From Spirulina major PCC 6313 (GTDB lineage: Bacteria; Cyanobacteriota; Cyanobacteriia; Cyanobacteriales; Spirulinaceae): a DNA stretch of 64,000 bases. The stretch covers positions 2,756,771 through 2,820,770 of the forward strand of contig NZ_KV878783.1 in the NCBI RefSeq assembly GCF_001890765.1, given 5' to 3'. Shown here in pieces: positions 46,464 to 52,172 of the stretch. The position numbers were made by a program, and so were the translations under genes. How positions within the stretch are numbered: the first letter of the stretch is position 1; the number at the start of each line of letters is the position of its first letter. Below the pieces are notes generated by a model, which worked only from the letters and a program-made list of their open reading frames with translations, was not told the DNA's origin and searched no databases.

Positions 46464-47150
46464 TTATTTTGAGGGAGTTTCACCCGGTGGAAGCAACCCC
46501 ATTTGAATGGCCCAGATCGCAGCCTGGGTGCGATCGCGCACCTCTAATTTTTGCAAAATCGTATGGACATGAACACGCACCGTTCCAGGCGCAATATAAA
46601 GAGCATCAGCAATCTCCCGATTGCTCTTGCCATGGGCGACTAAGGACAAAATTTCCTGTTCTCGTTTCGTTAAAGGATTCGTCGCCGCCGTTGATGACTC
46701 CTCAGTCACAAGGGGGGATGCTTGCTGAAACACCGATTGAATTTCCTGGGACGCGATCTCATCCCACCACGATGCCCCCACTGCCACCGATCGAATTGCC
46801 AAGATGAGAACTTCGGCGGCCACCCCCTTGACACAATAGCCCTGGGCCTGGGCTTCAATTAAACGGTTAATCAAGGTAGGCTGGGAATGAGACGTGAGAA
46901 TTAAAATAGGCAATTTGGGCTGAAGTTGTTTAATTTGGCGGCAGGTTTCGATACCGCCAATACCCGGCAACCCCACATCTAAAATCACCATGTCAAAAAC
47001 CTGTTGATGAACAAAGGCGATCGCCGTTTCCCCATCTTCGGCCTCAGCCACAATCTCTAAACTAGGTTCCTGGGTGAGCCGGGTCACCAACCCTAACCGG
47101 AACAGTTCATCATCTTCAACCAAAAGAATTCGGATTGGCGAGAGCGACAT
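46464..47150 (-). CDS. NarL/LuxR-type response regulator
   Basis: 228 residues. The receiver domain has ILLVEDDELFRLGL and phospho-acceptor DMVILDVGLPGIGG, then a LuxR helix-turn-helix (LTKREQEILSLVAHGKSNREIADALYIAPGTVRVHV). It is located 63 bases downstream of the sensor kinase on the same strand, forming a two-component pair. Target genes are unknown; being convergent to hoxH is not evidence of control. Confidence 0.93.
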   Translation of the reverse strand: MSLSPIRILLVEDDELFRLGLVTRLTQEPSLEIVAEAEDGETAIAFVHQQVFDMVILDVGLPGIGGIETCRQIKQLQPKLPILILTSHSQPTLINRLIEAQAQGYCVKGVAAEVLILAIRSVAVGASWWDEIASQEIQSVFQQASPLVTEESSTAATNPLTKREQEILSLVAHGKSNREIADALYIAPGTVRVHVHTILQKLEVRDRTQAAIWAIQMGLLPPGETPSK

Positions 47151-47213
47151 CGGAAACTATCCATAACACCAGGGCATGATTTGAGGGTGAAGCTCGGCAA
47201 AGGATGAGAAACA

Positions 47214-47891
47214 TCACAATTCGATCGGCACCCAAAAGGCAACAACAGCCCCGCGAGGCGATCGCTGCTCTGCCCATATTTTACCGCCATGGGCTTCAAT
47301 AATCTGACGACTGAGGTAAAGCCCTAAACCCGCCCCTTTCGCTTGGCGATCGCCGTTCCCTTGATAAAACCGCTCAAATAAATGGGGTAAATCATGCTCA
47401 GAGATGCCCTGTCCTTCATCTAATATTTGCACCTGATAAACATTGTTTTTAAGAGCAATAAAAATCTCTACTTTTCGCCCGCGTAGAGAATGGTGAATCG
47501 CATTCGTAATTAAATTATTAAACACGCGGTGTAGCTGAAACGCATCCCCATTAATCCAATAGGCTTGGCGAAAATCAGAGTCACCTTGACGCAGACATAA
47601 ATGAACTTGTCGAGACGTTGCGAGGGGGGTTAATTGCAAAATCACCTCTTCCGCAATATTCGTGAGATTCACAATGCTGCGGTGGAGTTGTAACCCATTC
47701 AGATCATTCCGGTAAATATCCATCAGCATTTCGACCAGTTGCAAGGTCATGCGATGGCTGCGGATCATAATGGCGATCGCCCGTTGTTGAGCGGTGTTGA
47801 TCGTGCCAAACTGTCCAGCCTGAAACGCATTGAGGGTTTCAATCGCTCCTAAAAGAGGCGTTTTTAAGTCATGGGTCAGCTTCGGTCTCAC
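47214..47891 (-). CDS. Sensor histidine kinase core, apparently lacking its N-terminal sensor
   Basis: 225 residues beginning directly at the H-box (LTHDLKTPLLGAIETL), then N-box (NLITNAIHHSL), G1 (DEGQGISEHD), F (LFERFYQG) and G2 (GAGLGLYLSRQI). The usual PAS/GAF/membrane sensor is missing and the frame opens with a GTG at 47891 right at the domain edge, so the gene looks 5'-truncated. The intervening 160 bases up to the next gene contain interleaved inverted repeats. The kinase may be constitutive or dead. Confidence 0.8.
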   Translation of the reverse strand: MRPKLTHDLKTPLLGAIETLNAFQAGQFGTINTAQQRAIAIMIRSHRMTLQLVEMLMDIYRNDLNGLQLHRSIVNLTNIAEEVILQLTPLATSRQVHLCLRQGDSDFRQAYWINGDAFQLHRVFNNLITNAIHHSLRGRKVEIFIALKNNVYQVQILDEGQGISEHDLPHLFERFYQGNGDRQAKGAGLGLYLSRQIIEAHGGKIWAEQRSPRGAVVAFWVPIEL

Positions 47892-49672: not shown

Positions 49673-50261
49673 ACCCGGATTAAGGCAACACAGGACAATG
49701 GTTTCATTATAGAAAATGTGACAAGAACAGGACGAAAATCACCATTTTCATCGATGCCACTCAATGGAGGCGTGCGAGGGAGTATTTATGTTGTGTAACC
49801 CTTTTCGCCCTGACCCATAATTTGTGCAACCCCTCAACCCCTCACCCAACCCTCTCCCGCAGGCCACTGCTTATGCATAACGTTCAAATGTTGGCCTACG
49901 TTGCGATCGATCCCCCTAAATCCCCTTTTAAAAGGGGGACTTTGAGCAGTTTGTGTATAAGCGGTAGACCGCAGGAGAGGGCTTTTAGCTCCCTTCTCCT
50001 GCGGGAGAAGCGATGCCCTGAGCTTGTCGAAGGCTTGCCCTGAGCGAAGCCGAAGGGGGGGGCTGGGAATGAGGGCACTAGATGGCAATCAGTCTGAATC
50101 TGCAATAAGTTGGGATGCACCCCCATTGCTCGTACCTTGGTCATCTGAAAAACCTTGAAGTTGACAGCCATGGCTCATTATCGACTTCCCCCTAAACAAC
50201 TAGCGGAACAACATACATTCGTATCTAGTCAACTATTTTTGATATCCTTCAAAAAAATGCT
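49673..50261. other. Intergenic region filled with dispersed repeats
   Basis: Contains CCCCTCACCCAACCCTCTCC (about 49838), CCCCCTAAATCCCC followed by a TTTTAAAAGGGGGAC hairpin (49912-49940), and a long copy ending GGGGCTGGGAATGAGGGC. It also contains the short palindromic unit CTGAGCTTGTCGAAGG/CTGAGCGAAGCCGAAGG (50017-50056). No gene is supported; open frames across it are repeat artefacts. The last 100 bases are AT-rich and should carry the glycosidase promoter. Confidence 0.6.
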
Positions 50262-52172
50262 ATGAATCATAGATTTTTCAAACGAAAGCACATTTATGGA
50301 GCCATCTTAACTCTATTGTTTTTGATCACAACCTCCCTCACCTTAACTAGCAACGTATCCGCCAAGAGCATAACAGTTCATTCATGGATAACAACCCCCG
50401 ATCAACATCAATTATTGCAACCACAAGATGACATCTCCTTCACCTCAAAAAAACAGCCCAGCCCTTTAACCATTAATCTCAACCCCAACACAAAATATCA
50501 ACAAATGGATGGCTTTGGGGCCGCATTAACTGATTCCTCTGCTTGGCTCATTGCGAATAAATTATCACCCACTCAACGCAACGCCTTATTAAATAATCTC
50601 TTTGAATCCGATGATGGAATTGGGTTAAACATTCTTCGCCTGCCTATGGGAGCATCAGATTTTGCTCTGAGCAATTATACATATAACGATCACAACGGTT
50701 TTCCAGATCTCGACCTTAGTGATTTTTCGATACAACATGACACTGCATATATCATCCCCACTCTTCAGCAAATCAAACAAGTCAATCCAGCGATGAAAGT
50801 CATGGGATCGCCATGGAGTGCGCCAGGTTGGATGAAAACCACTCGTACAAATAAGTGTCTGGATGTACAAGACTGGTCAGAAAATGATGGTGGAAATATA
50901 CAACAGTGGGATTGTACTGGCAATTCAAATCAAGCTTGGCAACTCGAAAAAAATCAACAAACAGGTCACGATCAGATTATTTCTGCCCATAGTAAAAAGT
51001 GTCTAGATGTACAAGACTGGTCAGAAAATGATGGTGGAAATATCCAACAGTGGGACTGTACTGGCAATTCAAATCAAGCTTGGCATCTTGAACATAATCA
51101 ACAAACAGGTCACTATCAGATTATTTCTGCCCATAGCAAAAAATGCCTAGATGTACAAAACTGGTCAGAAAATGATGGTGGAAATATCCAACAGTGGGAC
51201 TGTACTGGCAATTCAAATCAAGCTTGGCATCTTGAACATAATCAACAAACAGGTCACGATCAAATTATTCCAATTCACAGCAAAAAAACAGAGCCAAATG
51301 GTGGATTAAATCGTGGAATATTAAAGCCTCAATTTTATACTGCTTATGCAGACTATTTTACGAAATTTATCCAATCCTATGAATCCTATGGCATTCCCAT
51401 CTATGCAATTTCTGTCCAAAATGAGCCTCATCATGAATCTGATTATCCTACTATGAGGTTTGAGTCCGGCGACATGGCACGGTTCATTAAAGACTCGCTT
51501 GGCCCTAGTTTTTTATCGAATAACATAAAAACCAAAATACTCATCTGGGATCACAACTGGGATGAGCCCAACTACCCCATATCCATACTCAATCAACCTG
51601 AGGTCAGAGATTACATTGCAGGTTCGGCATTTCACTGTTATGCAGGCGATGTCAGTAATCAAACCATTGTCCACAATTCCCATCCTGATAAGGACGTGTA
51701 TTTCACAGAATGTTCAGGAGGGGGTTGGGAACGAGATTTTGGAAAAAACTTATCATGGCAAACCAAGTATCTTACTATTGGAGCGACTCGAAACTGGGCT
51801 AAAACTGTGCTGCTTTGGAATCTAGCCCTTGACGAAAATAATGGCCCTAAAAATGGAGGATGTCAGGATTGTAGAGGAGTGGTGACGATTAATAGCAATA
51901 CAGGGTCTATTGCGAAAGAAGTGGAATACTATGTCCTTGGGCATATTAGTAAGTTTGTCGATCCGGGGGCATACCGAATTGAATCAAATTCATTTGCAGG
52001 AAGACTTGAAAATGTTGCTTTTCAAAATCCTGATGGCTCATTAGTTTTATTGGCACTGAATCCCAGTAGTGAATCACAAATGTTCAACGTTCAGTGGTCT
52101 GGAAAATCATTCACCTACTCATTATCGGGTGGGTCAGTGGCAACATTGATCTGGAACATTTCACCGTCTTAA
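50262..52172 (+). CDS. Secreted GH30-family glycosidase with a ricin-type beta-trefoil inserted in the catalytic domain
   Basis: 636 residues. A signal peptide (hydrophobic LTLLFLITTSLTLTSNVSA, cut near 34) starts the protein. GH30 hallmarks: QMDGFGAALTDSSAWL (about 81), LNILRLPMGASDF (about 122), SPWSAPGWMK (about 183), acid/base Glu388 in ISVQNEPHHE, and nucleophile Glu483 in VYFTECSGGGW. The C-terminal beta domain has FQNPDGSLVLLALNPS. Directly after SPWSAPGWMKTT the barrel is broken by three near-identical 48-residue repeats (198-341), each with CLDVQ.WSENDGGNIQQW and the QxW motif NQAW of ricin B lectins. The barrel then resumes at LKPQFYTAYADYF. Related enzymes cleave glucosylceramide or beta-1,6-glucans. 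AT-rich, HIP1-free sequence suggests transfer. Confidence 0.92.
   Translation: MNHRFFKRKHIYGAILTLLFLITTSLTLTSNVSAKSITVHSWITTPDQHQLLQPQDDISFTSKKQPSPLTINLNPNTKYQQMDGFGAALTDSSAWLIANKLSPTQRNALLNNLFESDDGIGLNILRLPMGASDFALSNYTYNDHNGFPDLDLSDFSIQHDTAYIIPTLQQIKQVNPAMKVMGSPWSAPGWMKTTRTNKCLDVQDWSENDGGNIQQWDCTGNSNQAWQLEKNQQTGHDQIISAHSKKCLDVQDWSENDGGNIQQWDCTGNSNQAWHLEHNQQTGHYQIISAHSKKCLDVQNWSENDGGNIQQWDCTGNSNQAWHLEHNQQTGHDQIIPIHSKKTEPNGGLNRGILKPQFYTAYADYFTKFIQSYESYGIPIYAISVQNEPHHESDYPTMRFESGDMARFIKDSLGPSFLSNNIKTKILIWDHNWDEPNYPISILNQPEVRDYIAGSAFHCYAGDVSNQTIVHNSHPDKDVYFTECSGGGWERDFGKNLSWQTKYLTIGATRNWAKTVLLWNLALDENNGPKNGGCQDCRGVVTINSNTGSIAKEVEYYVLGHISKFVDPGAYRIESNSFAGRLENVAFQNPDGSLVLLALNPSSESQMFNVQWSGKSFTYSLSGGSVATLIWNISPS
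50853..51284 (+). repeat. Three 144-bp tandem repeats coding for the beta-trefoil
   Basis: The units start at 50853, 50997 and 51141, an exact 144-base period in frame with the glycosidase. They are nearly identical at the DNA level, including silent positions, which indicates recent duplication or gene conversion. Confidence 0.95.

What the first reader, a model, noticed from the sequence alone, without database searches (positions are those of the whole stretch)
50262..52172. GH30 glycosidase with a beta-trefoil lectin nested in its catalytic barrel
Carbohydrate-binding modules normally hang on the ends of glycosidases. Here a three-repeat ricin-type trefoil (residues 198-341) is inserted straight after SPWSAPGWMKTT, a loop at the active-site face, and the barrel resumes at LKPQFYTAY with both catalytic Glu residues intact. 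The lectin could clamp the substrate directly over the active site.
Basis: partly seen in the sequence, partly recalled or inferred. Interest (0 to 1): 0.75.

Follow-up and report, generated by a model that had tools for sequence, protein, structure and literature searches.

The report
Glucanase with a sugar-gripper nested inside
A cyanobacterium carries a secreted enzyme, probably for cutting fungal-type beta-1,6-glucan, into whose catalytic barrel a complete three-leaved sugar-binding domain of almost identical repeats has been inserted next to the active site; this is a new combination of parts, but nested sugar-binding domains were already known in other glycosidase families.

Summary
Window 50262-52172 (+) encodes an intact, probably secreted 636-aa protein: a GH30 barrel interrupted at residues ~195-345 by a ricin/CBM13-type beta-trefoil of three 48-aa repeats (90-94% identical), with both catalytic Glu (E388, E483) intact. 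AlphaFold2 predicts exactly 12 strands (3x4), pLDDT mostly above 90; the trefoil is circularly permuted (starts at strand 2, closes with a strand 1).
The closest GH30s (Paenibacillus order 58-62%, Chloroflexota 54%) have only a short loop there; where they carry a ricin domain it is C-terminal. No internal trefoil was found in about 1,600 genomes (overlapping samples, not exhaustive) or 72,556 plasmids.
New here: seven Chloroflexota genomes carry a different ~145-aa domain in the same loop, independently, so the GH30 beta3-alpha3 loop is a recurrent insertion site.
The catalytic domain matches BT3312 endo-beta-1,6-glucanase (11 of 12 mapped active-site residues) better than glucosylceramidase.
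Nested binding domains are precedented: GH10 Xyn10C (same beta3/alpha3 position), GH5_14 (a trefoil), MtGlu5, SusG. The combination is therefore a new variant of a known kind. The 'clamp over the active site' is plausible but unshown.

The parts
50262..52172 (+). Whole gene: secreted GH30 glycosidase with internal beta-trefoil, 636 aa
   Evidence: ORF; Pfam; only copy in the genome
50262..50366 (+). Probable Sec signal peptide (MNHRFFKRKHIYGAILTLLFLITTSLTLTSNVSA)
   Evidence: basic N-terminus, hydrophobic core and VSA motif read from the sequence; low confidence in the model (residues 1-32); no signal-peptide program was run
50367..50840 (+). GH30 first part: N-terminal strands of the beta-sandwich and barrel strands 1-3, ending ...SPWSAPGWMKT
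   Evidence: Pfam GH30 83-198; alignment with 44 GH30 relatives; AF2
50841..51296 (+). Insert in the beta3-alpha3 loop (residues ~194-345): circularly permuted ricin/CBM13-type beta-trefoil, 12 strands
   Evidence: Pfam RicinB; PDB sequence match ThreeFoil 2.8e-28; AF2 strands 198-337; absent from all GH30 relatives
50853..50996 (+). Repeat unit 1 (residues 198-245, KCLDVQDWSENDGGNIQQWDC...); predicted sugar site D201/W216
   Evidence: TRF, unit comparison, beta2 Asp / beta3 aromatic check
50997..51140 (+). Repeat unit 2 (residues 246-293); predicted sugar site D249/W264
51141..51284 (+). Repeat unit 3 (residues 294-341); predicted sugar site D297/W312; its last strand (332-337) takes the place of the missing first strand of unit 1
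51297..51944 (+). GH30 second part: barrel alpha3 to the end of the barrel, acid/base E388 and nucleophile E483, C534-C537 pair of the beta8-alpha8 loop
   Evidence: mapping on BT3312; conserved columns
51966..52148 (+). GH30C beta-sandwich domain (residues 569-629)
   Evidence: Pfam PF17189 3.3e-17

Best explanation
A secreted endo-beta-1,6-glucanase of the GH30 BT3312-like kind was acquired horizontally by this cyanobacterium. It carries a three-site CBM13-type beta-trefoil nested in the loop between barrel strand 3 and helix 3, at the rim of the catalytic cleft. The trefoil has three nearly identical sugar sites (Asp on beta2, Trp on beta3 of each repeat) and most likely works as a multivalent substrate-anchoring module held on the active-site face by two connections, keeping a polysaccharide (fungal, lichen or algal material with beta-1,6-linked glucan) at the cleft, while catalysis is ordinary retaining hydrolysis by E388/E483. 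The near-identity of the repeats means the trefoil arose, or was homogenised, by recent tandem triplication of one 48-aa foil. Because the array needs only three units' worth of strands in any phase, it could be spliced into the loop as a circular permutant with adjacent ends. Shown: sequence, domain boundaries, conserved catalytic and -1/-2 subsite residues, absence of the insert in relatives. Predicted: the permuted 12-strand fold. Inferred: substrate, sugar binding, presentation at the cleft, foreign origin, triplication history.
For: Domain calls. AF2 with a mixed alignment: pLDDT mostly 92-98 across the trefoil, 12 strands; with a GH30-only alignment the barrel is at about 97 and intact. 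Foldseek best match is BT3312 endo-beta-1,6-glucanase, TMt 0.86. BT3312 contact residues D131, W179, N237, E238, H281, N282, E339, W345, W377, C393 and C396 are all matched (N244 is D394) (with PMC5481569). NCBIfam's BT3312-type endo-1,6-beta-glucanase is the best named model, 401 bits. CBM13 geometry (acidic residue from beta2, aromatic from beta3; PMC11039641) is kept in all three repeats. dN/dS of 0.10-0.15 between repeats. Low GC (38-41%, GC3 0.25-0.42 against 0.47-0.68 for neighbours) and no GH30 homologue in other sampled cyanobacteria. Some GH30_3 enzymes carry CBM92, a three-site beta-1,6-glucan-binding trefoil (PMC11039641), so a trefoil on a beta-1,6-glucanase makes functional sense. 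Deleting an inserted CBM lowered catalytic efficiency in MtGlu5 (PMC9063844).
Against: No experiment. The NCBIfam BT3312 equivalog cut-off (700) is not reached. Inter-domain geometry is unknown (no coordinates or PAE available; pTM 0.77). CBM13 domains often bind galactose- or xylose-type sugars rather than glucans, so the lectin ligand may differ from the enzyme's substrate. [quoted passage not shown] Only one genome has it, so conservation of the architecture cannot be tested.
Confidence: 0.6

Rival explanations
1. The trefoil is an independently acting anchor (or cell-surface or biofilm lectin) that happens to sit in a tolerant loop; it does not touch the substrate in the cleft, and the loop is merely a permissive insertion site.
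For: In SusG and Pm25 inserted CBMs act largely independently (PMC7848910). The same GH30 loop holds an unrelated domain in seven Chloroflexota genomes, as expected of a permissive site. The permuted trefoil's ends should be adjacent in space, so insertion need not disturb the barrel.
Against: The loop follows directly after the W185...W190 stretch, and W185 is the equivalent of a -1 subsite residue in BT3312. MtGlu5 shows real cross-domain synergy (PMC9063844).
Confidence: 0.28
2. The insertion is recent and has damaged or altered the enzyme: catalytically weak, a decaying horizontally acquired gene or a lectin with a vestigial barrel.
For: Single genome, foreign base composition, near-identical repeats.
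Against: Intact ORF; all catalytic and most BT3312 subsite residues kept; dN/dS 0.10-0.15 between repeats; signal peptide kept.
Confidence: 0.08
3. Sequencing or assembly artefact: a collapsed or expanded repeat, or a chimera.
For: 144-nt near-identical tandem repeats are a classical assembly hazard.
Against: Reading frame kept through about three units; the three copies differ at 9-18 of 144 positions, mostly silent; the unit count gives exactly one complete trefoil; genome in 2 contigs, 99.9% complete.
Confidence: 0.03

Closest known systems
BT3312 (GH30_3 endo-beta-1,6-glucanase, PDB 5NGK/5NGL, Bacteroides thetaiotaomicron; PMC5481569)
   Same: Barrel plus beta-sandwich fold (TMt 0.86), catalytic pair, -1 and -2 subsite residues, the C393-C396 pair of the beta8-alpha8 loop
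   Different: No inserted domain; Asn244 is Asp in the window protein; lipoprotein in a PUL rather than a lone secreted enzyme
GH30 enzymes of the Paenibacillus order (L028, L029, L030, L013...) and Chloroflexota (L021, L023)
   Same: About 48-62% identity in the second half of the GH30 domain; the closest relatives found
   Different: Short loop (about 7-11 residues) in place of the trefoil; L028 carries a CBM6-looking and a ricin domain C-terminally
Xyn10C-like GH10 xylanases with two CBM4 between beta3 and alpha3 (Pm25, BACOVA_04390; PMC7848910)
   Same: Binding modules nested in the beta3-alpha3 loop of a TIM-barrel glycosidase
   Different: GH10, CBM4 tandem, xylan
Plant GH5_14 with fascin-like beta-trefoil inside the barrel (PMC12656318)
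   Same: A beta-trefoil nested in a TIM-barrel glycosidase
   Different: After the first barrel strand, fascin-like, plant, GH5
MtGlu5 GH5 with inserted CBM29-like domain (PDB 7VT8, PMC9063844) and SusG with CBM58 (as cited in PMC7848910)
   Same: CBM inside the catalytic domain; in MtGlu5 deletion lowers catalytic efficiency
   Different: Different position (MtGlu5 between the beta6-alpha6 loop and helix 6; SusG in the B domain), different CBM folds, other substrates
ThreeFoil (PDB 3PG0) and other symmetric trefoils
   Same: Nearly perfect threefold-repeated ricin-type trefoil; best PDB sequence hit of the insert (2.8e-28)
   Different: Designed and free-standing; the insert here is natural, circularly permuted and nested, and has two Cys per repeat

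Membership tests
Glycoside hydrolase family 30 (clan GH-A) | GH30 barrel profile above Pfam's gathering score | tested here: met
   158.9 bits against cut-off 23
Glycoside hydrolase family 30 (clan GH-A) | Acid/base Glu after beta4 (NEP) and nucleophile Glu after beta7 | tested here: met
   E388 and E483 align with BT3312 E238 and E339
Glycoside hydrolase family 30 (clan GH-A) | Associated C-terminal beta-sandwich | tested here: met
   PF17189 at 569-629
GH30 subfamily 3, endo-beta-1,6-glucanase (BT3312 type) | BT3312 substrate-contact residues | tested here: met
   11 of 12 mapped residues identical, N244 is D; D286 could not be mapped
GH30 subfamily 3, endo-beta-1,6-glucanase (BT3312 type) | NCBIfam NF053856 equivalog cut-off | tested here: not met
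   401 bits against cut-off 700; best named model all the same. I therefore call it BT3312-like, not a proven member
GH30 subfamily 3, endo-beta-1,6-glucanase (BT3312 type) | Hydrolysis of beta-1,6-glucan | not testable with these tools
   needs an enzyme assay
GH30 subfamily 1, glucosylceramidase | Closest relatives are glucosylceramidases | tested here: not met
   human GCase ranks behind BT3312 by sequence (3.5e-44 against 7.5e-87) and by fold
Ricin B / CBM13 beta-trefoil | Three QxW repeats, 12 strands | tested here: met
   three NQAW motifs, 12 predicted strands, Pfam PF00652 97.4 bits against cut-off 29
Ricin B / CBM13 beta-trefoil | Acidic residue on beta2 and aromatic on beta3 of each repeat | tested here: met
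   D/W in all three
Ricin B / CBM13 beta-trefoil | Sugar binding | not testable with these tools
   needs a binding assay
CBM92 (beta-1,6-glucan-binding trefoil) | WExF motif at the end of each subdomain | tested here: not met
   the repeats have NQAWxLE, with Trp/Asp placed as in CBM13 (motif from PMC11039641)
Glycosidase with nested CBM (Xyn10C/MtGlu5/SusG kind) | Binding module inside the catalytic domain sequence, barrel complete on both sides | tested here: met

The most novel reading that the evidence does not exclude
The trefoil was built inside the barrel: one 48-aa foil entered the GH30 beta3-alpha3 loop and was triplicated in place into a complete, circularly permuted, almost perfectly symmetric trefoil whose sites extend the enzyme's substrate cleft. 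It would be a natural, recent case of a globular fold assembled by triplication within another protein, at a loop of GH30 that repeatedly acquires new domains.
Probability: 0.2. Interest if true: 0.72.

Novelty: new variant of a known kind. Interest (0 to 1): 0.48.

Why it matters
It adds GH30 to the few barrel glycosidase families in which a sugar-binding domain is nested in the catalytic domain rather than hung on an end. Together with the Chloroflexota insertion found here, it makes the beta3-alpha3 loop of GH30 a recurrent insertion site, mirroring GH10. That is practically useful: it names a loop where binding modules can be spliced into GH30 enzymes, with a natural example. The nearly perfect repeat symmetry also offers a natural counterpart to designed symmetric trefoils such as ThreeFoil.

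Tried and rejected
Empty-site comparison: the upstream neighbour (2TM protein) is found in 11 other family genomes, but in the ten stretches read its neighbourhood is not conserved, so no empty chromosomal site could be shown. IMG/VR scan: no relative. Phage records: 6 matches, no place covering 80% of the query. CBM92 as the identity of the insert: rejected (no WExF). Glucosylceramidase as the activity: less likely than beta-1,6-glucanase. C-terminal ricin GH30s (Streptomyces tendae, Persicobacter, Nonomuraea) first looked like the same architecture (80-89% query coverage) but the ricin is C-terminal. The full mixed alignment misaligned the ricin rows, so a reduced set was used for AF2 after checking. 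Paper searches for a GH30 with an internal CBM13 or ricin domain found none in the open library; this library is incomplete. The CBM13/ricin survey PMC11212257 has no occurrence of GH30, 'inserted' or 'internal' in its main text. Promoter and terminator scan near the gene: nothing above chance.

Full report
What is there. Window 50262-52172 (+) is an uninterrupted 636-codon ORF beginning with a Sec-like signal peptide. Pfam finds the GH30 barrel in two stretches around a ricin-type lectin domain, then the GH30C sandwich. Inside the lectin part, a 144-nt unit is repeated 2.9 times at 94%. The three 48-residue units are 90-94% identical as protein and 88-94% as DNA; differences are mostly silent (dN/dS 0.10-0.15). 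In 18 other ricin-type trefoils fetched here, two repeats of the same protein are as a rule 37-81% identical over the 27-residue core, with a single pair at 93%; in the window protein the three values are 96-100%.

Where the insert sits. In 44 aligned relatives the sequence passes from ...SPWSAPGWMKT directly through a short loop to LKP..Y..YA.YF. Of 77 GH30 sequences examined (some loci overlap), 74 have 41-47 residues between WMK and the catalytic NEP; the window protein has 193, a Chloroflexota protein has 185, and one sequence is masked. The insertion point is the loop after barrel strand 3, and W185 just before it aligns with BT3312 W179, which contacts the -1 sugar (PMC5481569).

Does it fold as a trefoil? 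AlphaFold2 with an alignment holding both GH30 and ricin rows gives mean pLDDT 84.7, with residues 201-340 at 86-98 by blocks of ten, and exactly twelve strands in three sets of four. The first strand is a beta2 (198-202) and the last (332-337) is the beta1 of a notional fourth unit, so the domain is circularly permuted by one strand, and the two ends meet where beta1 and beta2 would normally be joined. With GH30 rows only, the barrel is modelled at about 97 and the insert is unsupported, as expected without an alignment for it. No coordinates or PAE could be read, so the trefoil's orientation over the cleft is not established.

What the enzyme is. The best solved relative by sequence and by fold is BT3312, an endo-beta-1,6-glucanase of GH30_3; human glucocerebrosidase comes behind. 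Of twelve BT3312 residues named in the paper that could be mapped, eleven are identical, including the nucleophile, the acid/base, the -2 stacking Trp and the disulfide pair of the specificity loop (PMC5481569). The NCBIfam BT3312 equivalog is the best named model but its strict cut-off is not reached. Beta-1,6-glucan, as in fungal and lichen walls, is therefore the likeliest substrate; this is inference. The trefoil keeps the CBM13-type pair (Asp on beta2, Trp on beta3) in all three repeats and lacks the WExF of CBM92 (PMC11039641), so three equivalent sugar sites are likely, of unknown specificity.

Where it comes from. The genome is a cyanobacterium (photosystem II chlorophyll proteins). 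No other GH30 of this kind was found in the 386 sampled genomes of the phylum, the 13 of the family or the 293 of the order. GC is 38-41% and third-position GC 0.25-0.42, against 0.47-0.68 in neighbours. The nearest GH30s are from the Paenibacillus order (up to 62% in the second half) and Chloroflexota; in the tree the window protein falls beside Paenibacillus-order sequences without firm support. Horizontal acquisition is well supported; the donor is not identified.

Is it unique? No other internal trefoil was seen in Cyanobacteria (386, 13 and 293 genomes, overlapping), the Paenibacillus order (300), Bacillota (379), Chloroflexota (301) or plasmids (72,556 records). Streptomyces, Persicobacter, Nonomuraea and one close Paenibacillus-order relative (L028) carry ricin domains C-terminally. 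Actinomycetota, Bacteroidota and eukaryote genomes could not be surveyed as such. Their GH30 falls in a separate Chloroflexota clade (95/94). Pfam and PDB sequence searches name no family for that domain, and it was not modelled.

How it most likely works. Catalysis is the usual retaining mechanism (established for GH30). The nested trefoil, tied at two points to the rim of the cleft, would anchor a polysaccharide by up to three weak sites and keep it close to the active site. MtGlu5 is the best experimental precedent for a nested CBM that works together with its cleft (PMC9063844); Pm25 and SusG are precedents for nested CBMs that work rather independently (PMC7848910). The sequence cannot decide between these.

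How the trefoil may have arisen. The repeats are far more alike than in any other trefoil compared, so they share a recent origin by triplication or have been homogenised. The phase is that of neither a normal terminal CBM13 domain (which starts with beta1) nor a simple transplant of one, which leaves open that the array was built in the loop; no intermediate with one or two foils was found, so this stays a minority reading.

Compared with what is known. Nested binding modules are a known kind: GH10 with two CBM4 at the very same beta3/alpha3 position, GH5_14 with a fascin-like trefoil inside its barrel, MtGlu5, SusG. What is new is GH30 as host, a CBM13-type trefoil as guest at this position, its circular permutation and near-perfect repeat symmetry, and the evidence that the GH30 loop has been invaded at least twice. 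I therefore rate it a new variant of a known kind, of moderate interest.

Noticed in passing
L077 1486-3438 (-); also L139, L140, L141, L142, L143: Chloroflexota GH30 with an unrelated ~145-aa domain (beta-rich by eye) inserted at the same beta3-alpha3 loop; uninterrupted in six genomes, 82-84% identical across the insert. No Pfam or PDB family named.
   Followed up: partly
L144 (genome G1003, contig 2, about 376521-378468): In a seventh Chloroflexota genome the same GH30 with the other inserted domain is split over three pieces, as by frameshifts; sequencing error or a decaying gene.
   Followed up: no
L028 589-1008 (-): The GH30 closest by its second half (Paenibacillus order, 62%) carries a C-terminal ricin trefoil whose second repeat (LDVQDWSTSNGGNIQQW) is among the nearest foils to the window's repeats, hinting at a shared pool of terminal trefoils.
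   Followed up: partly
L103 1477-1878 (+): A Paenibacillus-order ricin trefoil with two repeats 93% identical over the 27-residue core, another near-symmetric natural trefoil.
   Followed up: no
window 50007-50045: Short intergenic element upstream of the gene containing CTGAGCTTGTCGAAGG and a second copy of GCCCTGAGC 22 nt on; only one full match in the window against 0.03 expected.
   Followed up: partly
window 46464-47891 (-): LuxR-type response regulator and a histidine kinase fragment (225 aa, HisKA plus ATPase, no sensor part in the ORF) next to the large subunit of a NiFe hydrogenase; the kinase may be truncated or start upstream.
   Followed up: no
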